Source of the DNA: Heliocidaris erythrogramma
Lineage: Eukaryota; Echinodermata; Echinoidea; Camarodonta; Echinometridae
Length of the DNA: 64,000 nt
Direction: 5' to 3'
Assembly (NCBI GenBank): GCA_025617745.1
Contig: CM046873.1
Coordinates: forward strand, 24,783,547-24,847,546
The notes below the pieces were generated by a model. It had not been told where the DNA came from. It did not search any database and worked only from the letters and a program-made list of their open reading frames with translations. A program made the position numbers and the translations under genes. Position 1 is the first letter of the stretch. Each line of letters starts with the position of its first letter. Of the stretch, positions 10,853 through 62,037 are shown piece after piece.

Positions 10853-10953
10853 ACCTCCAAATGGCGGACTATGGTAGAAAAAAATATATTATATATATAT
10901 ATATTACGACTGACCTTCAACTACCGACCCTCAACCCCCCCCCCCCCCCCCCT
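10853..10953 (+). promoter_or_regulatory. Conserved promoter-like block of module 1
   Basis: CCAAATGGCGGACTATGG (about 10857-10874) and ACTGACCTTCAACTACCG followed by a poly-C run (about 10908-10952) lie just upstream of the exon 1 remnant. Both motifs and the poly-C are kept at 44739-44820 and 61728-61806. The ATGGCGG core resembles a YY1 site. Conservation across modules and position before exon 1 support a promoter role; no transcript evidence exists here. Confidence 0.4.
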
Positions 10954-10984
10954 CTAAAAAGAATGAATTTGACGAAGAAGAAGA

Positions 10985-11016
10985 ATATAAAACGTTAAAT
11001 TCCACTAAAACTTGAG
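10985..11016 (+). pseudogene. Truncated non-coding exon 1 remnant of TRIM-1
   Basis: The sequence ACGTTAAATTCCACTAAAACTTGAG with donor GTAAAG at 11017 matches the 3' end of exon 1 in modules 3 and 4. About 170-190 bp of exon 1 present in those copies is missing here, and the donor is weaker (GTAAAG rather than GTAAGC or GTAAGG). TRIM-1 at 22485 may therefore use another first exon, or be poorly expressed. Confidence 0.4.
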
Positions 11017-11331
11017 GTAAAGTGGCTAATTAAATGTGTGTGGAGTCTATAATCTTTAGAACGCATAAAGAGCAGTAGCCGTAAATTAAAATGTGTGTGG
11101 TTGCAAAAACTTACAATCTATTTCTCTCTATCTGTCTATGTATATGATTACAGATTGCTACATGATACCTTTCAGGCATGTATGTCTATGTTCTCATTTT
11201 GTGTATAAAGGTGTGTTGTATCTTTTTTCAGAGTGTTATTCACTGATTCTTTCATATCGCCTGTAAGTTATGTTGTTAATAGGATATAGACCTAATATCA
11301 TCTTATGTATCAACCGTCACCATTTTATTTA

Positions 11332-27600: not shown

Positions 27601-30600
27601 TATGGAATACTTTTTTATGTGAAATGGCAAGAAAGAGAGAGCACGGGAGAAATTGAGAGGCAGAGAGAGGGAATGAAAGGTAGAGAGAAAGAGAGAAAGA
27701 GAGAGAGAGGGAGAGAAACGTGGGCTAGAGACAGGGCACTGCAGGGGACGGGGAAAATGGGGAGGTGAACAAATATTATGTTCATACACTGTACAGTTTA
27801 TACATGATTAATGTAACAAATAATTATGTGCATTGTGAATATGAAAATTACATGACAATTTTACAACATCAGTGTGTGATGCATCTAGTGAAATAATAAT
27901 TTCTAATATATACATTCATTACAGCACTACTGTTTTAAACATAATTTGTGTGTTTAAAAAATGATAATCATTGGTTGTTGTCGCGCAGGTAGATGAATTG
28001 AATACACTGAATGGTTGGAAGTTTACACAAAGTCAGAAGCACATATATCATTCAAACGTTTCTTGAAGAGAGAAAGAGAGAGAGAGGGAGAGAAACGTGG
28101 GCTAAAGACGGGGCATTGCAGGGGACGGGGAAAATGGGGAGGTGAACAAATATTATGTTCATACACTGTACAGTTTATACATGATTAATGTAACAAATAA
28201 TTATGTACATTGTGAATATGAAAATTACATGGCAATTTTACAACATCAGTGTGTGATGCATCTAGTGAAATAATAATTTCTAATATATACATCCATTACA
28301 GCACTACTGTTTTAAACATAATTTGTGTGTTTAAAAAATGATAATCATTGGTTGTTGTCGCGCAGGTAGATGAATTGAATACACTGAATGGTTGGAAGTT
28401 TACACAAAGTCAGAAGCACATATATCATTCAAACGTTTCTTGAAGAGAGAAAGAGAGAGAGAGAGGGAGAGAAACGTCGGCTAGAGACAGGGCATTGCAG
28501 GGGACGGGGAAAATGGGGAGGTGAACAAATATTATGTTCATACACTGTACAGTTTATACATGATTAATGTAACAAATAATTATGTACATTGTGAATATGA
28601 AAATTACATGACAATTTTACAACATCAGTGTGTGATGCATCTAGTGAAATAATAATTTCTAATATATACATTCATTACAGCACTACTGTTTTAAACATAA
28701 TTTGTGTGTTTAAAAAATGATAATCATTGGTTGTTGTCGCGCAGGTAGATGAATTGAATACACTGAATGGTTGGAAGTTTACACAAAGTCAGAAGCACAT
28801 ATATCATTCAAACGTTTCTTGAAGAGAGAAAGAGAGAGAGAGGGAGAGAAACGTGGGCTAGAGACAGGGCATTGCAGGGGACGGGGAAAATGGGGAGGTG
28901 AACAAATGATAATCATTGGTTGTTGTCGCGCAGGTAGATGAATTGAATACACTGAATGGTTGGAAGTTTACACAAAGTCAGAAGCACATATATCATTCAA
29001 ACGTTTCTTGAAGAGAGAAAGAGAGAGAGAGGGAGAGAAACGTGGGCTAGAGACGGGGCATTGCAGGGGACGGGGAAAATGGGGAGGTGAACAAATATTA
29101 TGTTCATACACTGTACAGTTTATACATGATTAATGTAACAAATAATTATGTACATTGTGAATATGAAAATTACATGGCAATTTTACAACATCAGTGTGTG
29201 ATGCATCTAGTGAAATAATAATTTCTAATATATACATCCATTACAGCACTACTGTTTTAAACATAATTTGTGTGTTTAAAAAATGATAATCATTGGTTGT
29301 TGTCGCGCAGGTAGATGAATTAAATACACTGAATGGTTGGAAGTTTACACAAAGTCAGAAGCACATATATCATTCAAACGTTTCTTGAAGAGAGAAAGAG
29401 AGAGAGAGGGAGAGAAACGTGGGCTAGAGACAGGGCATTGCAGGGGACGGGGAAAATGGGGAGGTGAACAAATATTATGTTCATACACTGTACAGTTTAT
29501 ACGTGATTAATGTAACAAATAATTATGTACATTGTGAATATGAAAATTACATGACAATTTTACAACATCAGTGTGTGATGCATCTAGTGAAATAATAATT
29601 TCTAATATATACATTCATTACAGCACTACTGTTTTAAACATAATTTGTGTGTTTAAAAAATGATAATCATTGGTTGTTGTCGCGCAGGTAGATGAATTGA
29701 ATACACTGAATGGTTGGAAGTTTACACAAAGTCAGAAGCACATATATCATTCAAACGTTTCTTGAAGAGAGAAAGAGAGAGAGAGGGAGAGAAACGTGGG
29801 CTAGAGACAGGGCATTGCAGGGGACGGGGAAAATGGGGAGGTGAACAAATGATAATCATTGGTTGTTGTCGCGCAGGTAGATGAATTGAATACACTGAAT
29901 GGTTGGAAGTTTACACAAAGTCAGAAGCACATATATCATTCAAACGTTTCTTGAAGAGAGAAAGAGAGAGAGAGAGGGAGAGAAACGTGGGCTAGAGACA
30001 GGGCATTGCAGGGGACGGGGAAAATGGGGAGGTGAACAAATATTATGTTCATACACTGTACAGTTTATACATGATTAATGTAACAAATAATTATGTACAT
30101 TGTGAATATGAAAATTACATGGCAATTTTACAACATCAGTGTGTGATGCATCTAGTGAAATAATAATTTCTAATATATACATCCATTACAGCACTACTGT
30201 TTTAAACATAATTTGTGTGTTTAAAAAATGATAATCATTGGTTGTTGTCGCGCAGGTAGATGAATTGAATACACTGAATGGTTGGAAGTTTACACAAAGT
30301 CAGAAGCACATATATCATTCAAACGTTTCTTGAAGAGAGAAAGAGAGAGGGAGAGGGAGAGAAACGTCGGCTAGAGACAGGGCATTGCAGGGGACGGGGA
30401 AAATGGGGAGGTGAACAAATATTATGTTCATACACTGTACAGTTTATACATGATTAATGTAACAAATAATTATGTACATTGTGAATATGAAAATTACATG
30501 ACAATTTTACAACATCAGTGTGTGATGCATCTAGTGAAATAATAATTTCTAATATATACATTCATTACAGCACTACTGTTTTAAACATAATTTGTGTGTT

Positions 30601-33600
30601 TAAAAAATGATAATCATTGGTTGTTGTCGCGCAGGTAGATGAATTGAATACACTGAATGGTTGGAAGTTTACACAAAGTCAGAAGCACATATATCATTCA
30701 AACGTTTCTTGAAGAGAGAAAGAGAGAGAGAGGGAGAGAAACGTGGGCTAGAGACAGGGCATTGCAGGGGACGGGGAAAATGGGGAGGTGAACAAATATT
30801 ATGTTCATACACTGTACAGTTTATACGTGATTAATGTAACAAATAATTATGTACATTGTGAATATGAAAATTACATGACAATTTTACAACATCAGTGTGT
30901 GATGCATCTAGTGAAATAATAATTTCTAATATATACATCCATTACAGCACTACTGTTTTAAACATAATTTGTGTGTTTAAAAAATGATAATCATTGGTTG
31001 TTGTCGCGCAGGTAGATGAATTGAATACACTGAATGGTTGGAAGTTTACACAAAGTCAGAAGCACATATATCATTCAAACGTTTCTTGAAGAGAGAAAGA
31101 GAGAGAGAGAGGGAGAGAAACGTCGGCTAGAGACAGGGCATTGCAGGGGACGGGGAAAATGGGGAGGTGAACAAATATTATGTTCATACACTGTACAGTT
31201 TATACATGATTAATGTAACAAATAATTATGTACATTGTGAATATGAAAATTACATGACAATTTTACAACATCAGTGTGTGATGCATCTAGTGAAATAATA
31301 ATTTCTAATATATACATTCATTACAGCACTACTGTTTTAAACATAATTTGTGTGTTTAAAAAATGATAATCATTGGTTGTTGTCGCGCAGGTAGATGAAT
31401 TGAATACACTGAATGGTTGGAAGTTTACACAAAGTCAGAAGCACATATATCATTCAAACGTTTCTTGAAGAGAGAAAGAGAGAGAGAGGGAGAGAAACGT
31501 GGGCTAGAGACAGGGCATTGCAGGGGACGGGGAAAATGGGGAGGTGAACAAATGATAATCATTGGTTGTTGTCGCGCAGGTAGATGAATTGAATACACTG
31601 AATGGTTGGAAGTTTACACAAAGTCAGAAGCACATATATCATTCAAACGTTTCTTGAAGAGAGAAAGAGAGAGAGAGGGAGAGAAACGTGGGCTAGAGAC
31701 GGGGCATTGCAGGGGACGGGGAAAATGGGGAGGTGAACAAATATTATGTTCATACACTGTACAGTTTATACATGATTAATGTAACAAATAATTATGTACA
31801 TTGTGAATATGAAAATTACATGGCAATTTTACAACATCAGTGTGTGATGCATCTAGTGAAATAATAATTTCTAATATATACATCCATTACAGCACTACTG
31901 TTTTAAACATAATTTGTGTGTTTAAAAAATGATAATCATTGGTTGTTGTCGCGCAGGTAGATGAATTAAATACACTGAATGGTTGGAAGTTTACACAAAG
32001 TCAGAAGCACATATATCATTCAAACGTTTCTTGAAGAGAGAAAGAGAGAGAGAGGGAGAGAAACGTGGGCTAGAGACAGGGCATTGCAGGGGACGGGGAA
32101 AATGGGGAGGTGAACAAATATTATGTTCATACACTGTACAGTTTATACGTGATTAATGTAACAAATAATTATGTACATTGTGAATATGAAAATTACATGA
32201 CAATTTTACAACATCAGTGTGTGATGCATCTAGTGAAATAATAATTTCTAATATATACATCCATTACAGCACTACTGTTTTAAACATAATTTGTGTTTTT
32301 AAAAAATGATAATCATTGGTTGTTGTCGCGCAGGTAGATGAATTGAATACACTGAATGGTTGGAAGTTTACACAAAGTCAGAAGCACATATATCATTCAA
32401 ACGTTTCTTGAAGAGAGAAAGAGAGAGAGAGAGGGAGAGAAACGTCGGCTAGAGACAGGGCATTGCAGGGGACGGGGAAAATGGGGAGGTGAACAAATAT
32501 TATGTTCATACATTGTACAGTTTATACATGATTAATGTAACAAATAATTATGTACATTGTGAATATGAAAATTACATGACAATTTTACAACATCAGTGTG
32601 TGATGCATCTAGTGAAATAATAATTTCTAATATATACATTCATTACAGCACTACTGTTTTAAACATAATTTGTGTGTTTAAAAAATGATAATCATTGGTT
32701 GTTGTCGCGCAGGTAGATGAATTGAATACACTGAATGGTTGGAAGTTTACACAAAGTCAGAAGCACATATATCATTCAAACGTTTCTTGAAGAGAGAAAG
32801 AGAGAGAGAGGGAGAGAAACGTGGGCTAGAGACAGGGCATTGCAGGGGACGGGGAAAATGGGGAGGTGAACAAATGATAATCATTGGTTGTTGTCGCGCA
32901 GGTAGATGAATTGAATACACTGAATGGTTGGAAGTTTACACAAAGTCAGAAGCACATATATCATTCAAACGTTTCTTGAAGAGAGAAAGAGAGAGAGAGA
33001 GGGAGAGAAACGTGGGCTAGAGACAGGGCATTGCAGGGACGGGGAAAATGGGGAGGTGAACAAATATTATGTTCATACACTGTACAGTTTATACATGATT
33101 AATGTAACAAATAATTATGTACATTGTGAATATGAAAATTACATGGCAATTTTACAACATCAGTGTGTGATGCATCTAGTGAAATAATAATTTCTAATAT
33201 ATACATCCATTACAGCACTACTGTTTTAAACATAATTTGTGTGTTTAAAAAATGATAATCATTGGTTGTTGTCGCGCAGGTAGATGAATTGAATACACTG
33301 AATGGTTGGAAGTTTACACAAAGTCAGAAGCACATATATCATTCAAACGTTTCTTGAAGAGAGAAAGAGAGAGAGAGAGGGAGAGAAACGTCGGCTAGAG
33401 ACAGGGCATTGCAGGGGACGGGGAAAATGGGGAGGTGAACAAATATTATGTTCATACACTGTACAGTTTATACATGATTAATGTAACAAATAATTATGTA
33501 CATTGTGAATATGAAAATTACATGACAATTTTACAACATCAGTGTGTGATGCATCTAGTGAAATAATAATTTCTAATATATACATTCATTACAGCACTAC

Positions 33601-34302
33601 TGTTTTAAACATAATTTGTGTGTTTAAAAAATGATAATCATTGGTTGTTGTCGCGCAGGTAGATGAATTGAATACACTGAATGGTTGGAAGTTTACACAA
33701 AGTCAGAAGCACATATATCATTCAAACGTTTCTTGAAGAGAGAAAGAGAGAGAGAGGGAGAGAAACGTGGGCTAGAGACAGGGCATTGCAGGGGACGGGG
33801 AAAATGGGGAGGTGAACAAATGATAATCATTGGTTGTTGTCGCGCAGGTAGATGAATTGAATACACTGAATGGTTGGAAGTTTACACAAAGTCAGAAGCA
33901 CATATATCATTCAAACGTTTCTTGAAGAGAGAAAGAGAGAGAGAGGGAGAGAAACGTGGGCTAGAGACAGGGCATTGCAGGGGACGGGGAAAATGGGGAG
34001 GTGAACAAATATTATGTTCATACACTGTACAGTTTATACATGATTAATGTAACAAATAATTATGTACATTGTGAATATGAAAATTACATGGCAATTTTAC
34101 AACATCAGTGTGTGATGCATCTAGTGAAATAATAATTTCTAATATATACATCCATTACAGCACTACTGTTTTAAACATAATTTGTGTGTTTAAAAAATGA
34201 TAATCATTGGTTGTTGTCGCGCAGGTAGATGAATTGAATACACTGAATGGTTGGAAGTTTACACAAAGTCAGAAGCACATATATCATTCAAACGTTTCTT
34301 GA
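27600..34302. repeat. Satellite array: 377-379 bp and 189-191 bp units, ~20 copies
   Basis: Measured from the landmark GCAGGGGACGGGG, units start at 27741, 28118, 28497, 28874, 29063, 29440, 29817, 30008, 30387, 30764, 31143, 31520, 31709, 32086, 32465, 32842, 33033, 33411, 33788 and 33977. Fifteen steps are long (377-379) and five short (189-191, starting at 28874, 29817, 31520, 32842 and 33788). All short units share one deletion joining AACAAAT to GATAATCATTGG. Diagnostic variants (ACATGA/ACATGG, TTCATT/TCCATT, CGTGGG/CGTCGG, GAATTAAAT, ACGTGATT) define unit types that recur every 2646 bp over part of the array. Each unit has a GA tract. Non-coding. Confidence 0.95.
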
Positions 34303-35937
34303 TTTAACGAAACACTCCACCCCCCCCCCCCCCCCCCCCACCTCCCCTCTGTCCTCCGTCACGGCCCTTAACATGCCTGCGTAGGGCAGGGAGGGGTGTG
34401 GAATGATCAATGAACAGCTAGTGTGTTTTAATTATAAATGCATGATATTTCTCTCTCTCTCTCTCCCTCTTGCTGTTTTTTGTTTTGTTTTGTTTGCCTC
34501 TCTGCCTTCCCCTTTTCTCTTTACTCCTCTCTCTCTCTCTCTCTCTCTTTGTTTCTCTCTCTCCCTCTTGTCTTGCTTTTTTTATCTGTCCCTTACAAAC
34601 CCCTTCCTCTCCGTCTTCCTCTCTAATTAACTTTCACTTTACCAATACTCCTCTAACCAGTCACTACCGAACCAAACATAAACCATCATACATACCTTTA
34701 ATTCATTTTGGCACTTTTAATATAAATCTCTCTTTTCTGTGATAGTTATGATATCAAATGGTCTATTGTACATGATGGAAATCTATTACGAAACCCCACA
34801 AAACTGTTGAATGAACAACTCATTCCTCCTTTTTTGTAAAAATCTCTACACAACACCTGATTTGTTGTTTATATTGTCTTGTTTGAAGCCATTTTAACCG
34901 CTTTGCATACACATGCCTTACTCTTCACATCCATATTACTATATTGGTCTTCTTTCTGCATAAAACATGCACACACGTATATTTCATCGTTTGAGCTACA
35001 TTCAACTATAAAACGGTACAAAAGTCACGCTGTCTACTTTATTTTTTGATCTTATCTGCTTAACTTCAAGAAGCAATGGATTTTTGCATTTGTTACATTT
35101 AGCACATCTGTGCATGGTTTATGAGTTAAACCAACCAAACTAATAAACTAATAAATTCAGATAGGTTAAGTTTTTATATTTAATGAAAATAATGCTTTAC
35201 AATTCTGGTACATTTTGAGAAAAAAATGAAGCATCGACCTACATATCATTTGTATAATAATCCAGCCAATACACTTTTATTTGTAAGAAAACATTGTTGT
35301 CCTCACTTTTTATTTAACATTATTAGATCCATTCTAATAAAATCAATAATGAAATTCTTTTCATTAATTCTTAAATAGCTCTATTTTAATATCGAAACAA
35401 CATCTGCATCCGGCCTCAAAACCTAATACTGACGACATGATGACCATTGCAGAATAGTTCATGGGTACGTTGAAAGCTTTAAAAGATATTTCTCGTACAT
35501 TGCCTTGCACATTCTCTTTCATTTTCCTGATTTTTAAATGATATTATAGCTGTGTGGTTATTGTAAACAATTTGTTTAAGTTTTAGACAAATATTTAAAG
35601 GAAGCAGAAATAGGCAATACATTTATATTTCCTAAAATTCTTCAGTGCAGCTGTGTGGCACAACGAAGTCAATAACAATATTGGACTACTCTAGCATTGC
35701 ACACGTCACGAGATGTCCACAATTGTTCTTTCAGTACGATATATACATATATATACATGTACATATATAAAGGCATCTATTGTATGTACCATATCATCAG
35801 GCTTTTCCTGTAAATATTTTCAAAAACCTTCAAAAAAATATTATGTGAGGGTTAACTTCACCCATGTAAAGTATTACAATCAGGAAAATGAAAGTTAATG
35901 TGCATGGTAATTTTCTAGCAAAAGGTATAAAATATAT
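34303..35937. other. Satellite right flank, no gene
   Basis: A poly-C run (34320-34339) and CT-rich microsatellites (34450-34570) come first. Then CTCTCTAATTAACT and ACCAATACTC (34620-34660) match 13027-13060 of the module intron. The rest is AT-rich with nothing recognised. Leu/Ser-rich frames here are microsatellite translations. Confidence 0.5.
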
Positions 35938-44852: not shown

Positions 44853-44883
<31 letters not shown>

Positions 44884-44892
44884 GATAGATAT

Positions 44893-45291
44893 ATATTGTG
44901 AGGAAATAACATATACAACAGCTTTGGCAACTCTCGTGGAAATATATACAATGCGAAAGGAAATGAAAGAATAATGGTTGCGTAACTTAAATCAAAGTTC
45001 CCCAGAGCTGTCCTCCGTTTTTGAAATTTTTTGCAAAGGCTGAAAAAATGTGTCCGCTGACCCGTCTCCGTGGTCTAGTGGTTAAGGCATTGGCGTTCTA
45101 AGCCAACGACCCAGGTTCGATTCCCGGCGGAGACATTTTTTCAGCCTTTGCAAAAAAAATAAAAAAGGGAGGACAGCTCTGGGGAACTTTGATTTAAGTT
45201 ACGCAACCATTAATCTCTCAGTTCCTTTCGCATTCTGTATATTTCCACGAGAGTTGCCAAAGCTGTTGTATATGTTATTTCCTCACAATAT
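44893..45291. repeat. Long inverted repeat with a tRNA gene at its centre
   Basis: Left arm 44893-45050 and right arm 45134-45291 are about 158 bp each and highly similar when inverted (TGTGAGGAAATAACATATAC outermost; GCAAAGGCTGAAAAAATG innermost). The 83-bp centre is almost entirely the tRNA gene at 45064-45134. Modules 1 and 4 lack this DNA at the equivalent place; it entered an AT microsatellite upstream of TRIM-3 exon 1. A transcript through it would fold into a long duplex with the tRNA as its loop. Confidence 0.9.
45064..45134 (+). tRNA. tRNA-Arg(UCU)-like gene
   Basis: 71 nt, no intron. Acceptor stem GTCTCCG/CGGAGAC is perfect, and the D stem is GTCT/AGGC. Anticodon stem TTGGC/GCCAA closes the loop GTTCTAA, giving anticodon TCT with T33 and A37. 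The T stem CCAGG/CCCGG has one A-C mismatch around TTCGATT. Box A TGGTCTAGTGG and box B GGTTCGATTCC are intact. T6 at 45136-45141 is a good Pol III terminator. The D and T arms look more like tRNA-Glu/Asp than typical animal tRNA-Arg, so charging identity is uncertain. Confidence 0.8.
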
Positions 45292-45469
45292 TGTTAATAA
45301 TTATTCTAATGTATACATGTATCTCAAAGCATTCGCTTGCATCCAGCTGAGGCACGCGGCTTGTCTCTGTTCAAACTCACCTGGCCCCGACAACGGAATT
45401 AATTAATAAGGTTGAAGATTTGTCAATCTGTCGGTCAATTGAATCTGGTGTCGCCGAAACCACTGACCC

Positions 45470-45540
45470 GTCTCCGTGGTCTAGTGGTTAAGGCATTGGC
45501 GTTCTAAGCCAACGACCCGGGTTCGATTCCCGGCGGAAAA
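45470..45540 (+). pseudogene. Second tRNA-Arg(UCU)-like copy, broken acceptor stem
   Basis: Same body as 45064-45134, with a perfect T stem CCGGG/CCCGG, but the 3' acceptor side reads CGGAAAA instead of CGGAGAC, giving two mismatches. Boxes A and B are intact and T7 follows. It carries only the right arm of the palindrome downstream (about 45541-45640), so it is a partial copy of the same unit. Confidence 0.75.
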
Positions 45541-45689
45541 TTTTTTTCAGCCTTTGCAAAAAATTTCAAAAAGGGAGGACAGCTCTGGGGAACTTTGATT
45601 TAAGTTACGCAACCATTATTCTCTCATTTCCTTTCGCATTATATATAGATATATATAGATACAACCAAGACAAATCCTACCCCATACAG

Positions 45690-47410: not shown

Positions 47411-50400
47411 TCGGTCAGTGTCTCAGATAGAAAAAAGAGAAAAATGATTCAGAAATTGGTCAGTGAGTTTGTGATCATTGATAATTTACTATCTTTTATG
47501 ATTTACTAACCACTTTTATATACTTTTAAATAAGAATTGTACGGAATCTCATGTAATGCGCACTGTATATGTGCTATTTAGAACCTGTTCATGTATAGTG
47601 TAAAGTTAATTGTGACAAGTAACACCTGCACTGGTGCTAAATCAGCACTACTAGTGCAGTTACTATACCGATCACTTGAAAAGTGCTGAAAATAGCTCTC
47701 CCGGTGCTAATAGTCTATGGGCCAACGTAGACCCCCCCTCCCCCCCCCCCCCCCCCTTAGGCACAATTTTTGTGATGTTTTCCTGGTATCTAGGACCCTC
47801 AGCTATCAGAATCTGCCTGTTTGCCATAGAGTTAGTGGTGGGTGTGGCCACCAGGGCCGTTACCATGGCAACGCATCAAGGAAATATAGGAATTTACTAA
47901 AATACCTAATATTTCTAATTCAGAAATTTGAAAAATGACTGGTAAGCATCTAAATATATGTATTTTGAGTTTCCTGATTGATTGAAACCAAAATCTAGGT
48001 CATTTTGAAGTCACGGTCATGTAAAAAAAATGGCCGTTACTTTGGAAACGGTGCCATAAAAAGTTTATATTTTGGAAACATATCCAAACTTATCAGTATA
48101 GAGAGGGGCCGTCTACACAATCTTAGATTATATTTTTCTATTAGCTAGGACCCTCAGCTATCAAAATCTGCCTATTTTCCATAGAGTTCATGGTGGGCGT
48201 GGCCGCTAGGGCCGTTACCATGGTAACACATAACGAAATACTGGAATTTAGAAAATACCATATATTTGTCATTTAACAGCATAAAATATATGGTAAGGAC
48301 TATAATATATGTATTTCAACCTACCCCACTGATTCCAACCACAATTAGAGTCATTTGAAGTCATGGGCGTGTAAAAAAAGGGCCGTTGCTATGGAAACGG
48401 TCCTACAAAATTCTGACTTTTGTGGAAAATATCTATGATTTATCAATACAAAATAGAAAACAACTGTCTGCACAATCTTAAATCATGTTTTTCTGTTAGC
48501 TAGGACCCTCAGCTCTCATATTCTTCCTATTTTACATAAAGTTGGTAGTGGGCGTGACCACTAGGGTTATTACCATGGTAACACACCAAGGAATGGAATT
48601 TTAGAAAATAACATATATATCTGTAATTCAATATCACAAAAACAAATTGTAACCATCTAACTATATGTATTTTTGGGTGCCCGTTTGATTGGAAGTAGAA
48701 TCAGAGATATTGGAAGTCACCGTCATGTCAAAACATGGCTGTTGCTATAGAAACAGTATGATAATAATTGAATATTTCTGTAACTAATCAACACAAAACA
48801 AAGAATAAGTGTATGTACAGCCTAAAATGGTGTTTATCTGTCAGCTAAATCTGAGTCATTGGAAGTCACCAACATGTCAATACATGGTTGTTTCCATAGA
48901 AACGTTATGGTGAATTAATAAATATTAGTGAAAAAATCTGTAACTATCCAATGCACTTTATAAAGTAAGGGTTTCCACAACCTGAAATGATGTTTTTTCC
49001 CCTGTTAGTCAAAACAGGGTTGTTGCCATGGTAGATTTTTTGTTATTACACAGCAGCAATTATGTTGCAAAGACATTTTGTAACTGTTCGTCGTGTTTGG
49101 ATAGCTCCGGGCAAGATGTGGGTGTCCATGTGGGGGACCGTTGCAGTAACAACAGCTGATCCTAACTGGTTAGCTGTACATGAGTAGTTATGCATCCACC
49201 TCTACTATGTCTTAGCGTTGGGAGGGAGGCAATGGAGGCTTAATAGATAGATTCATCTCAGCCACAGAACCTTATGTATTCATAAGATGATAAACTTGTC
49301 GGTCTTTAGGGAAACCTGTCTACTTGAAATAAATCTGAGGAGATTGGAATAGAAGTTAGAATTTTTTCCCCTAATCCTACCCACACGAAATCTGAATGTT
49401 CATTAAGGATTAACAGCATGACCAAGGTGGTCTAGGATTTGGATTTCATCAGAACAGGGCTAAAGAATTGAACTTTGGGTGCTTCATCGTAGATCAAGTC
49501 CAGGACTAAAGTGATGTTACCTGCCTGGATTTTTTATTTGCTAGAAGGTATTCAAAAAGTCACTGAGAAGGCCTGTGGTGCAATTGCAGCTCAGCATTCT
49601 CACGACTTGCATGATTGGGATACATGTATATTATCCATGGACTTGATGTGTTGGGGACCATAAGACCTATAAGTTTACATATTGGTTGCCCTTACAGGTA
49701 AGCTGCAGTTCTCTTGGCTTTAGAGGAGATATGGCCAATAGTTTGTGAGATGGTTCCTCTAATACTATCTTGCCTTAAACATGATTGGATAAAGGATGGG
49801 GTATATTTAGCAGAGTTTAGTGGCTGAAATAATGTTGTGAAATTAGTGAACACCAGTGGGTTTGTCTATCTTTTACAGCTTTACTTGAACTGCTACGGTT
49901 AGGATGAAGATGATGAGTGAATCCTCACTTCACCATCGAGGGAATTCAAATTTACTTAGTATAGTTTGGTATGTACATGTAGTTCTGAAGTCTGTCAATG
50001 CCTTATTGTATCTGTTCATCATGATAACTCTGATTGATGGGTAATCCGCAATCTCATCCAAAGTAGCAGGTGTTGCTGCAAGAGGAATTCTTCTGAAAAT
50101 GTTCGTACCTTTATCCAAAGGATGCTCTCTAACTTCTGATTCCTAATGGCATCCATTTATAGAACTCCTTGCAGGGGGAAAGTGGAATACATGTAGCTCT
50201 CATGTCAACAAAGTGTGGACACTTGTGTACCTCAGTCATCATTTCACAGACGACCGTGAACTCAATACCGACACATTAATTGCAGTTAGCAGTACAGTCA
50301 GAAATGAACTTTATAAAAATAATATCATCACCAACATTATCTTTCGTGTTGTGAAATCACAGAAATATGCAATTTTTTTCTAAATATAGATTTCTCGATC

Positions 50401-50824
50401 ATAATCTGCCTTAGCAGCGACCATATTTGGATATGATCATTGTCTTAAATGATCAACATTTTCAATGCAATCATTCAGGCTGCTTGCTATGGAGATATGT
50501 AGCCTTGCATCTATTTGAACATTTGCATCTTCGTTTATCATAGCAAGTGTCCTACCAGGCATGAACTTGAGACCTCCAACCTGGAAAATATTCTTGATCT
50601 GGATTTGAACCAATAGGACAGTTACAAATTTATGAACTCAAGCACTTGTTTATAATTCATTATTTAGGTACATAAATATCCCTTTCTTAAAAGTCAATAT
50701 TAACTTTCTTATTCTTTTCCTTTGGCAATGACATATTTTTATATGGCTGACCTAAATTCATCCGGCTTTTGATTGTAATTAAAGGCGCAGCTTCAATTAG
50801 ATGCCTACATTGTACTTCGTTACA

Positions 50825-50985
50825 TTACAAATACATGGTGGAAGCACTGTGGTATATTGGTGAAGGTTTTTCAATCTCATACGAGAGCTCTTGGATTCGA
50901 TCCTTGATCGGTGCTTACATCCCTGGGCAAGGTGTTTGCCCACATTTGTTTTGCTTGACCCAGATGTACAGTGTATGAAATGTGT
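50825..50985 (+). mobile_element. tRNA-related SINE-like segment
   Basis: GTGGTATATTGGTGAAGG and GGATTCGATCC resemble Pol III boxes A and B with tRNA-like spacing. GGGCAAGGTGTTTGCCCACA and TGACCCAGATGTACAGTG follow, resembling the body of tRNA-derived SINEs. It lies in the centre of the foldback element. Confidence 0.4.
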
Positions 50986-53319
50986 ACAAGGCAATGATAG
51001 TTGCAGGGCAGTAGTAATATTACTGATGCGGTTATCCTGGTTAAGTAAGATCAATTTATTATAATCTATTATTCTAAAACTCTGATGTTTGTTGGTGCCT
51101 TACCATGGTACCTACTAGGAAGCTTTCAATTATGATAGCTGAGGGTCCTAGCTGACAGATAAACACCAATGTAGGCTGTACATACACTTGTTCTTTGTTT
51201 TGTGTTGAATAGTTACAGAAATATTGAATTTTAATCATACTGTTTTCTATAGCAACAGCCATGTTTTGACATGACGGTGACTTGCAATTAATGACTCTGA
51301 TTCTAGTTGCAATCAAAAGGGCACCCCAAAATACATATAGTTAGATGGTTACAATTTGTTTTTGTGATATTGAATTACAGATATATAGTATTTTCTAAAA
51401 TTCAATTCCTTGGTGTGTTACCATGGTAACAACCCTAGTGGTCACGCCCACTACCAACTTTATGTAAAATTGGAAGAATATGAGAGCTGAAGGTCCTAGC
51501 TAACAGAAAAACATAATTTAAGATTGTGCAGACAGTTGTTTTCTATTTTGGATTGATAAATCATAGATATTTTCCACAAATATCAGCATTTTGCGGGACC
51601 GTTTCCATAGCAACGGCCCTTTTTACACGCCCATGACTTCAAATGACTCAGATTGTGGTTGGAATCAGTGGGGCAGCTTGAAATACATATATATTAGAGT
51701 CTTTACCATATATTTTATGCTGCTAAATGACAAATATACGGTATTTTCTAAATTCCAGTATTTCGTTATGTTACCATGGTAACGGCCCTAGCGGCCACGC
51801 CCACCATGAATTCTATGGAAAACAGGCAGATTATGAGAGCTGAAGGTTGTAGCTAACAGAAAAACATGATTTAAGATTGTGCAGACAGTTGTTTTCTATT
51901 TTGTATTGATAAATCATAGATATTTTCTACAAATATCAGGATTTTGCGGGACCGTTTCCATAGCAACGGCCCTTTTTACACGCCCATGACTTCAAATGAC
52001 TCAGATTGTGGTTGGAATCAGTGGGGCAGCTTGAAATACATATATATTAGAGTCTTTACCATATATTTTATGCTGCTAAATGACAAATATACGGTATTTT
52101 CTAAATTCCAGTATTTCGTTATGTGTTACCATGGTAACGGCCCTAGCAGCCACGCCCACCACCATGTGAAACAAGCAAATAATGATAGCTGAGGGTCATA
52201 ACTAATATAAAAACATTATCAAAGACTGTGCAGACACCTTTTTCTTTCTATTTTGTAATGGTTAGTTATAGATTTTTTCACAAATAACAGCTTTTTGTTG
52301 GACCGTTTCCATAGCAACGGCCTTTTTTGACACGCCCATGACTTTAAATGGCTCAGATTGTGATTGCAATCTATCAGGCAGCTTGAAATACACATAATGG
52401 GATACTTACCATATTTTTTATAGCTATTGAATTACAAAGATGCAGTATTTTCTAAGAATCCAGTATTTTAAAATAAATATATTAGGATGCTTACCAAGTA
52501 TTTTTAGATTTGTGAATTGGAATTATATGACTTTTCCTAAAATTCATATTTTTCTTGATCCGTTACCATGGTAACGGCCCTGGTGGCCACACCCACCACC
52601 AACTTTATGGCAAACAAGCAGATTCTGATAGCTGAGAGTCCTAGCTAACAGAAAAACATCATTTAAAATTGTGCCTAAGGGGGGGGGGGGGCCTTTTCGG
52701 TTTCTGGCCCATGGACTATAAAGACAGCACCCTTTATAGTGCAAAATAAGTAGCACTTTTTGGGGTGCTGTGACAAATATTAGCACAGACTGTGCTGCCC
52801 CGATGGGAGCACCAAAAAGGTACTGAATATAGCCCACGTGCTAAAACAGTACTTCAGTTTTTAGTGTCTACATACCATTCTTTTTATTCGTGCAATACAT
52901 ATCTTTTTAGAAATCTGTACAGGCGATGACGTCACGCAATGTCATGCTCAAGTAGATACACCGAATATTCCATGTAGAAATTTAGTGTAATCATGGTGGT
53001 AAACATGTTTTGTATAATCAGGACACAGTAAGTAGCGAATTTGAGATTACCTAACTTTTCTGATAAATGTTGGCGAAAATCAGGGTTTGCCTATGCCATT
53101 TGCGACATTTAACGATTTATAGCGATATTTTAGCGATATTAAACGACAATTAGCAACATTTTAGCGAATGCTTGCGAAAATGTTTGCGAAAGGCAGTTGG
53201 CGACTATTAGCGACTGTAAGCAAATGTTAGCGACAGCTTTTGCGAAGATTAGCAACTATCTGCCAATCCTTTGCCACTATTTGTGAATAACTCCTGGGAA
53301 AGTACCAGGCGAATTTGGT

Positions 53320-61727: not shown

Positions 61728-61806
61728 CCAAATGGCGGACTATGGTAAAATGTTAATTTTTACGACTTACCTTCAACTACCGACCCTCAAACGCCCCCCC
61801 CCCCCC
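61728..61806 (+). promoter_or_regulatory. Conserved promoter-like block of module 4
   Basis: CCAAATGGCGGACTATGG, CTTCAACTACCGACCCTCAA and a poly-C run, as in modules 1 and 3. TATATATAAA at about 61840-61849 lies just before exon 1 and could be its TATA box. Confidence 0.4.
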
Positions 61807-61849
61807 TCTGAAAACATAAATTTGAAGAAGAAAATATATATAAACCCCA

Positions 61850-62037
61850 CACAGCTCTTTATTCCAAGTACGAACATGCCAAACGTGCCCTTAACACCTA
61901 CCCATTTTTTGTTCCCAACACCACTGAACATGATAGGCCTAGGCAGCTACATGTACGAAAGAGACTGATATCTGTACAGGACTCGCATAGATCTGAGGTT
62001 GTTGTGGCTAAACGTTGAATTCCTACTAAAATTTGAG
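61850..62037 (+). other. Predicted non-coding exon 1 of a fourth TRIM gene
   Basis: CACACAGCTCTTTATTCCAA through CTACTAAAATTTGAG matches 45690-45881 closely and ends at donor GTAAGG (62038). By analogy the coding exon should lie downstream, past the right edge of the window. Confidence 0.5.

What the first reader, a model, noticed from the sequence alone, without database searches (positions are those of the whole stretch)
44893..45640. tRNA-Arg(UCU) gene forms the loop of a ~158-bp-arm palindrome placed at a TRIM promoter
The two arms are near-identical and inverted, and the centre is little more than a complete tRNA gene with Pol III boxes and a T6 terminator. DNA just before the tRNA (GTGTCCGC) resembles the inverse of the tRNA 3' end, as if the inverted duplication broke inside a tRNA. 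A second half-copy (tRNA plus right arm only) follows. The block sits between the conserved promoter motifs and exon 1 of TRIM-3, where modules 1 and 4 have nothing. It may be a tRNA-carrying foldback element. Read-through would give a long hairpin RNA capped by a tRNA, and Pol III occupancy could affect the neighbouring gene.
Basis: partly seen in the sequence, partly recalled or inferred. Interest (0 to 1): 0.75.

Follow-up and report, generated by a model that had tools for sequence, protein, structure and literature searches.

The report
tRNA-bearing retroelement that leaves palindromes
The palindrome around a tRNA gene is one insertion of an abundant mobile repeat that carries a complete tRNA gene in its repeat unit and appears to be copied by an abundant Penelope-type retrotransposon of the same genome.

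Summary
In detail: arms 44893-45057/45127-45291 (165 nt, 94%) flank a complete tRNA-Arg(UCU). It is neither a one-off nor a foldback DNA transposon. The 1.06-Gb genome holds 3,433 copies of the tRNA core (42-mer, <=3 mismatches) and 1,433 perfect 72-nt tRNAs. They belong to a ~406-bp unit (spacer-tRNA-arm) found truncated or in head-to-tail arrays. In 54 fetched loci, 73 of 95 outer 3'-type ends fall on two TA-containing sites of the unit, mostly running into (TA)n microsatellites; 0 of 39 5'-type ends do. Head-to-head joints number 37, tail-to-tail neighbours 9. This fits target-primed reverse transcription from both sides of a (TA)n break, so the palindrome is an insertion by-product. Paralogous TRIM modules show the empty site. 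The likely enzyme source is an abundant, young Penelope-like element (PLE): its fragments share (TA)n sites with the unit, its copies also pair head-to-head, and one locus is a unique PLE-unit chimera. The tRNA is better conserved than the spacer. No hammerhead ribozyme was found in the unit. Closest known: metazoan retrozymes, PLEs, SINEs. Why the tRNA is kept is unresolved (promoter or RNA-processing site).

The parts
44854..44892 (.). (TA)n / GATA microsatellite, left side of the target
   Evidence: only three runs of (TA)>=6 in the window, one of them here; short TA run at the paralogous empty site 61832-61844
44893..45057 (-). inverted, 5'-truncated copy of the unit: u244..u406,u1-2 (last 9 nt of the tRNA plus the arm); its 3' end faces outward into (TA)n
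45054..45647 (+). second copy, same RNA sense: u171..u406 then u1..u358 (tRNA, arm, spacer, tRNA, part of the arm); its 3' end faces outward into TA/GATA repeats
45064..45135 (+). tRNA-Arg(UCU) gene, copy 1; promoter boxes TGGTCTAGTGG (A) and GGTTCGATTCC (B); T6 directly behind (box consensus recalled, not from a call)
   Evidence: ARAGORN; RF00005 60 bits
45136..45289 (+). arm module A (u253-406), complete
45290..45469 (+). spacer module S (u1-170) plus 10 nt; completes the ~406-bp tandem unit
45470..45541 (+). tRNA-Arg(UCU), copy 2, acceptor 3' strand altered
45542..45647 (+). arm module truncated at the TA site u358, merging with TATATATAGATA
45640..45670 (.). TA/GATA repeat, right side of the target; resembles the left flank (possible target-site duplication, not resolvable in a simple repeat)
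61740..61900 (.). paralogous TRIM-module sequence without the insert (empty site, short TA run)
10870..11060 (.). second paralogous empty site

Best explanation
The block is one insertion of a non-autonomous retroelement whose repeat unit is ~406 bp (spacer S, a complete tRNA-Arg(UCU), arm A). Sense RNA of the unit, monomeric or multimeric, is copied at a break in a (TA)n microsatellite: DNA 3' ends of (TA)n anneal to TA-containing sites of the RNA (u352-359 or u404-u2) and prime reverse transcription from both sides of the break. The two cDNAs, truncated at different 5' points, are joined head-to-head, often at a few bases of microhomology. Because both carry the same 3' arm, a palindrome results, and the tRNA lies in the loop because the joint fell near it. 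The reverse transcriptase and endonuclease most probably come from an abundant, young Penelope-like element of the same genome. Shown by sequence: the unit, its copy number, the two preferred 3' sites, variable 5' ends, head-to-head joints, the (TA)n target, an empty paralogous site, and one PLE-unit chimera. Inferred: that the intermediate is RNA, that the PLE is the mobiliser, that multimers come from circular or tandem RNA, and that the tRNA serves the element (internal Pol III promoter, or an RNase P/RNase Z cutting site that releases units).
For: Dispersed family: 178 matches from 40 scored of 2,083 candidates; reversed-pattern controls 0. Tandem 406-bp arrays: in L025 seven consecutive units differ from the first by 0-2 bases. 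Ends over 54 loci, 67 chains: of 95 3'-type outer ends 41 are at u349-361, 32 at u401-u4, 22 elsewhere; of 39 5'-type outer ends 0 are in those windows. The windows are 23 of 406 positions, so about 5 of 95 would be expected if uniform. 55 of the 73 clustered ends pass a strict (TA)n flank test. Joints: 37 minus-then-plus (head-to-head), 25 of 37 with 2-14 nt overlap, against 9 plus-then-minus neighbours. The TA sites are nearly self-complementary, yet none of the 39 5'-type ends starts there, which argues for a single-stranded sense RNA template. Empty site. PLE link: in L018 the unit is fused to a PLE-type endonuclease ORF, a junction found once in the genome at <=3 mismatches, while L036 has another sequence upstream of the same motif; that endonuclease stretch has 3,582 candidates, 150 of 150 scored at 98-100% identity, and among those 150 all 6 opposite-strand pairs under 3 kb are head-to-head (counted by eye); PLE pieces lie at the same (TA)n stretch as a unit in L018, L035 and L044; 136 PLE 3' regions run into TA-like repeats; 6 of 27 GIY-YIG hits on C1-C3 lie within 10 kb of a known unit against 0.47 on average by shifting, 0 of 5000 shifts reaching it (within 5 kb: 3 of 27 against 0.23, 14 of 5000); three of the six are one cluster beside one unit.
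Against: The unit shares no 3' sequence with the PLE that I could see except TA, so the PLE link is circumstantial and rests mainly on one chimera plus shared sites and architecture. Of 2,137 PLE 3' regions (23-mer, <=2 mismatches) only 136 (35-mer, <=3 mismatches) run into TA-like repeats at that place; where the others end was not seen, and L036 does not run into TA there. 22 of 95 3'-type ends lie elsewhere; several look like later inserts at TTAA, not all were explained. 18 of the 73 clustered ends fail the strict TA-flank test, and 24 of 39 5'-type ends have no (TA)n flank by that test. Nine plus-then-minus neighbours exist: 7 in five loci with longer chains or neighbouring inserts, most with two 3' ends facing at the usual sites across a short or TA gap; 2 in the near-copies L056/L057 unexplained. 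Target-site duplications cannot be measured in a simple repeat. The GIY-YIG score of the chimera's endonuclease is below the Pfam cut-off (18.6 bits, E 0.0024; cut-off 22.6), and other PLE-like pieces of L033 and L044 gave no Pfam hit, so naming them PLE rests partly on recalled motifs. A LINE could make similar 5' inversions by twin priming (recalled). No transcript data.
Confidence: 0.74

Rival explanations
1. The unit is a LINE-dependent, tRNA-derived SINE-like element, and the palindromes are ordinary 5' inversions by twin priming with a LINE enzyme that uses (TA)n.
For: Preferred 3' sites, variable 5' ends, 5' inversions with microhomology; a tRNA is present; LINE-type reverse transcriptase stretches occur in the window and, scoring below the Pfam cut-off, near two units (L050, L063).
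Against: The tRNA is internal to a tandem unit and closed by T6, so it is not a 5' head; arrays of at least 7 seamless units; both outer ends use the same 3' sites; the reverse-transcriptase element found fused to a unit and sharing its (TA)n sites is PLE-like. The LINE in the window has no (TA)>=6 run near it. LINEs of the rest of the genome were not surveyed.
Confidence: 0.13
2. Satellite or extrachromosomal DNA of the unit is patched into broken (TA)n sites by template-dependent double-strand-break repair, with no reverse transcription.
For: Microhomology at joints and TA annealing at the outer ends; tandem arrays exist.
Against: The TA sites are nearly self-complementary, so with a DNA template both strands should be copied; in the sample only the sense is (73 of 95 3'-type ends on the sites, 0 of 39 5'-type ends). 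Copy number in the thousands; one fusion to a retroelement ORF.
Confidence: 0.06
3. A tRNA-carrying foldback element or TA-targeting MITE (DNA transposon) with the arms as terminal inverted repeats.
For: The window copy alone looks like this: long arms, TA at both ends; microsatellite-associated MITEs exist (PMC8449440, search listing and abstract start only). A few loci share or nearly share a centre (L007/L008; L004/L009/L012).
Against: 30 of 67 chains have one orientation with variable 5' ends; two alternative 3' ends; most palindrome centres differ from locus to locus.
Confidence: 0.03
4. A TRIM-type LTR element with a tRNA in its LTR (Helenus), whose tandem copies look like arrays.
For: Helenus carries tRNA-like sequence in LTRs and forms tandem arrays in one fish family (PMC10886601, passages).
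Against: No fixed LTR-internal-LTR structure seen: 5' ends are scattered over the unit and inserts sit in (TA)n. PBS and PPT were not scanned, and 4-bp duplications cannot be judged in (TA)n.
Confidence: 0.02

Closest known systems
Metazoan (non-LTR) retrozymes
   Same: Small non-coding units (150-300 bp in PMC7761336, 170-400 nt in PMC11722881; passages), tandem copies, no RT of their own, suggested to depend on LINEs or PLEs
   Different: No hammerhead found: no ribozyme among the Rfam hits in an L025 stretch of just over three units at E<=10 and no CTGANGA core; a tRNA gene occupies each unit instead; a candidate autonomous partner is visible here
Penelope-like elements (PLEs)
   Same: 5' truncation, partial tandems, head-to-head inverted terminal copies, microhomology joints (PMC3846280 passages; PMC8969392 passages)
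   Different: 406 bp is too short for an RT plus GIY-YIG ORF; the unit would be a non-autonomous client
tRNA-derived SINEs (general description recalled)
   Same: tRNA moiety with Pol III boxes, thousands of copies, probably reverse-transcribed
   Different: Complete tRNA of 65.5 bits with its own T6, internal to a tandem unit, (TA)n 3' junction, two-sided insertion
Helenus TRIMs (tRNA in LTR)
   Same: tRNA sequence inside a short non-autonomous retroelement; tandem arrays in one family (PMC10886601)
   Different: No LTR architecture seen, variable 5' ends, (TA)n target

Membership tests
Metazoan retrozyme | type I hammerhead ribozyme in each unit | tested here: not met
   (unit of L025 only); the genome-wide RF00163 search did not complete
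Metazoan retrozyme | short non-coding unit in tandem copies | tested here: met
   406-bp unit, at least 7 in a row
Metazoan retrozyme | circular RNA in tissues | not testable with these tools
   needs RNA
Penelope-like element | RT plus GIY-YIG ORF | tested here: not met
   by length: 406 bp; no domain scan of the unit itself was run; the unit-PLE junction of L018 occurs once
Penelope-like element | head-to-head inverted, 5'-truncated, partly tandem copies | tested here: met
tRNA-derived SINE | tRNA-related 5' head with Pol III boxes | tested here: not met
   tRNA present with boxes, but internal; 5' ends are scattered
tRNA-derived SINE | LINE-related 3' end | not tested
   LINEs of this genome were not surveyed; 3' ends are TA sites
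Helenus / TRIM | two LTRs as fixed ends | tested here: not met
   no fixed 5' end
Helenus / TRIM | PBS, PPT and 4-bp target duplication | not tested
   not scanned; duplications cannot be read in (TA)n
Foldback element / MITE | fixed terminal inverted repeats at both ends | tested here: not met

The most novel reading that the evidence does not exclude
A retrozyme-like selfish RNA that has swapped the ribozyme for a host-processed tRNA: multimeric transcripts are cut at each tRNA by RNase P and RNase Z, the freed 334-nt body (possibly circularised) is copied by Penelope enzymes into (TA)n, and the genome is seeded with more than a thousand intact tRNA-Arg(UCU) genes that may also alter the tRNA pool.
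Probability: 0.2. Interest if true: 0.85.

Novelty: new variant of a known kind. Interest (0 to 1): 0.6.

Why it matters
Which enzyme moves metazoan retrozyme-like repeats is left open in the passages seen (PMC7761336, PMC11722881, PMC8969392). Here a tandem, tRNA-bearing repeat shares sites, joint architecture and one chimeric insertion with a young PLE family, so the PLE-client idea becomes directly testable. It also warns annotators: the genome has 1,433 perfect copies of this tRNA-Arg(UCU), and the copies examined lie in mobile units; and long palindromes can be insertion by-products rather than foldback transposons or assembly errors.

Tried and rejected
Foldback/MITE reading, LTR/Helenus reading and pure DNA-repair capture: see rivals. 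A hammerhead or other ribozyme in the unit: looked for by Rfam at E<=10 and by core motif, none. Selection on the tRNA per copy: weak; in the 20 C1 loci, which were chosen by a perfect tRNA core, substitutions are 2.75% in the 30 tRNA positions outside the search pattern against 3.25% in S and 5.57% in A1. Unit as a natural part of the PLE: rejected because the junction is found once and L036 shows another upstream sequence. A human-type tRNA-Arg 20-mer recalled from memory gave 0 matches, which says little; the host's ordinary tRNA-Arg(UCU) genes were not sought further. Literature searches (one search failed on a term): none of the titles and abstract starts listed describes a tRNA-gene unit moved by a PLE; lists were capped and subscription journals are mostly missing. 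Craig et al. 2021 (PMC8557442) is not held and is only recalled. Organism not identified.

Full report
What is there. The palindrome, the tRNA in its loop and the second tRNA are real. Searching the window's own genome (G000, 1.06 Gb, 26 contigs; the window is C21:24783547-24847546) showed at once that the sequence is a dispersed family: 178 matches from the 40 scored of 2,083 candidates. Many matches hold only the tRNA and the right arm, some repeated at 406-bp spacing, the same spacing as between the two tRNAs of the window. The repeat unit, taken from the array in L025 (seven consecutive units differing from the first by 0-2 bases), has a 170-bp spacer S, 10 nt, a 72-nt tRNA T (u181-252) and a 154-bp arm A (u253-406). 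Spacings in other arrays vary slightly around 402-412 (listings).

Copy numbers. tRNA core 42-mer at <=3 mismatches: 3,433; arm 39-mer at <=3: 2,685; spacer 41-mer at <=3: 2,180; complete 72-nt tRNA at 0 mismatches: 1,433; spacer 41-mer at 0: 487; reversed-pattern controls 0 in each. A perfect 72-mer of the tRNA is thus three times as common as a perfect 41-mer of the nearby spacer. Two sample consensus lines differ at 10 positions, none of them in the tRNA, but both samples were chosen partly by their tRNA. Against a strong reading: in the 20 C1 loci the 30 tRNA positions outside the search pattern differ from their consensus at 2.75% and S at 3.25% (substitutions). Conservation therefore acts, if at all, on source lineages and not on each copy. 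ARAGORN finds 86 tRNA-Arg(UCU) and 7 other tRNA calls in the 54 analysed loci.

Ends and joints. I mapped 54 loci (40 fetched by place, 14 of the 24, the rest being repeats of these; L031, the window's paralogue, and the near-copies L007/L008 and L056/L057 were kept). They form 67 chains, 30 of one orientation and 37 mixed. Each outer end is 3'-type or 5'-type in the sense of the tRNA strand. Of 95 3'-type ends, 41 lie at u349-361 (GTATATAT) and 32 at u401-u4 (CAATAT), 22 elsewhere; of 39 5'-type ends none lies there. At these two sites the unit passes into (TA)n (55 of 73 by a strict test). 15 of the 39 5'-type ends also abut (TA)n. There are 37 minus-then-plus (head-to-head) joints in 32 loci, 25 of them with 2-14 nt overlap, and 9 plus-then-minus neighbours. 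Of these 9, seven are in five loci, mostly two 3' ends facing each other across a short or TA gap, as two neighbouring inserts would; two are the near-copies L056/L057. Centres of palindromic loci mostly differ; L007 equals L008, L004/L009/L012 nearly share a centre in the T arm, and L010 and L018 share a CGCCG joint, which may be microhomology hot spots.

Reading. Preferred 3' sites and scattered 5' ends, with no 5'-type end at the nearly self-complementary priming sites, are what target-primed reverse transcription of a sense RNA predicts; two-sided priming at a (TA)n break followed by joining explains the head-to-head pairs. The window locus is such a pair: inverted u244..u2 joined to u171..u358. 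[quoted passage not shown] The pre-insertion state is visible in two paralogous TRIM modules, where a short TA run (61832-61844) or a short A/T stretch (10981-10991) takes the place of the insert. L031, 264 kb away, carries the same insertion with flanks 98.8% and 97.8% alike over 1.8 and 1.7 kb, so a segmental duplication followed.

Who moves it. GIY-YIG domains are common (121 matches among 150 scored of 1,721 candidates). In L018 the unit runs without a break, at TGTTGT, into an ORF with CDARYVGRTSQRLADRIKQHVP, which hits GIY-YIG at E 0.0024, below cut-off. The same protein stretch has 3,582 candidates and 150 of 150 scored are 98-100% identical, with frames up to 858 aa. In L036 the sequence before this motif is VIYQFQCR, not the unit, and the L018 junction occurs once in the genome at <=3 mismatches. 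L018 is therefore a one-off chimera, most simply a template switch of one enzyme from PLE RNA to unit RNA. In L035 PLE 3' parts stand head-to-head beside the unit with both outer ends in (TA)n; in L044 a PLE-type RT (RVT_1 E 8e-6, under the cut-off; PLE motifs recalled) is truncated at the very (TA)n that holds the unit. Among the 150 rows, 6 of 6 opposite-strand pairs under 3 kb (by eye) are head-to-head. Six of 27 GIY-YIG hits on C1-C3 are within 10 kb of a known unit, 0.47 expected by shifting; three of the six are one cluster beside one unit, and the unit lists were incomplete. Less favourable: only 136 PLE 3' regions run into TA-like repeats at the place tested against 2,137 found with a shorter pattern; mismatch budgets differ and the other ends were not seen.

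The tRNA. It scores 65.5 bits in the L025 units, has A and B boxes (recalled consensus) and is closed by T6. A terminator directly behind it means that normal Pol III transcription should yield only the tRNA, not the ~406-nt unit, which sets this apart from SINEs (inference). A relative about 70% alike in L018 (2264-2593) keeps a tRNA-like fold with another anticodon (tRNA-Cys(aca)); by comparison one acceptor pair has changed on both sides (T-A to C-G), while two others are broken. Two roles remain: promoter for occasional read-through, or a cutting site by which RNase P and RNase Z free units from multimers, as the hammerhead does in retrozymes. The 3' ends do not distinguish them, because priming looks internal.

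Comparison. Metazoan retrozymes are short tandem non-coding units with a hammerhead, and their helper is unknown, LINE or PLE (passages of PMC7229834, PMC7761336, PMC11722881). PLEs are 5'-truncated, partly tandem and often head-to-head (passages of PMC3846280, PMC8969392). Helenus puts tRNA sequence in LTRs (PMC10886601, outline, abstract, passages). Passages of PMC10294476 on bivalve SINEs added nothing specific. The present family works like the first, is probably a client of the second, and by the features tested is a member of none.

Noticed in passing
L018:2264-2593: A relative about 70% alike with the same S-tRNA-A order, tRNA-like with anticodon ACA, also next to (TA)n: perhaps an older sister family of tRNA-bearing units.
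   Followed up: partly
L031:2980-3624; L043; L052: Inserts with GAATTAAC-like ends split units at TTAA, in L031 inside a tRNA (GGTTAA): seemingly a TTAA-targeting DNA element that hits this family repeatedly.
   Followed up: no
L031 (C21:25090500-25096000): The window insertion with at least 1.7 kb of flank on either side is duplicated about 264 kb away at 98-99% identity, probably part of the spread of the TRIM modules.
   Followed up: partly
27690-34387: A 6.7-kb satellite array of ~189-bp units, many in 377/379-bp dimers, most 300-nt copies 97-100% alike.
   Followed up: no
47743-52691: Nested inverted repeats (arms up to 244 nt, 95%) around about 2.8 kb.
   Followed up: no
L056 and L057 (C1:6994700, C1:7274500): Two near-copies of a plus-then-minus unit fragment u108-158/u111-351, the only chains with that arrangement alone; perhaps a secondary palindromic derivative.
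   Followed up: no
window:16110-18588: LINE-like ORFs with Exo_endo_phos and RVT_1 domains on the minus strand.
   Followed up: no
G000:C5:31736366-31736521: Best GIY-YIG match of the genome lies in an open frame of 2,415 aa, far longer than the PLE frames.
   Followed up: no
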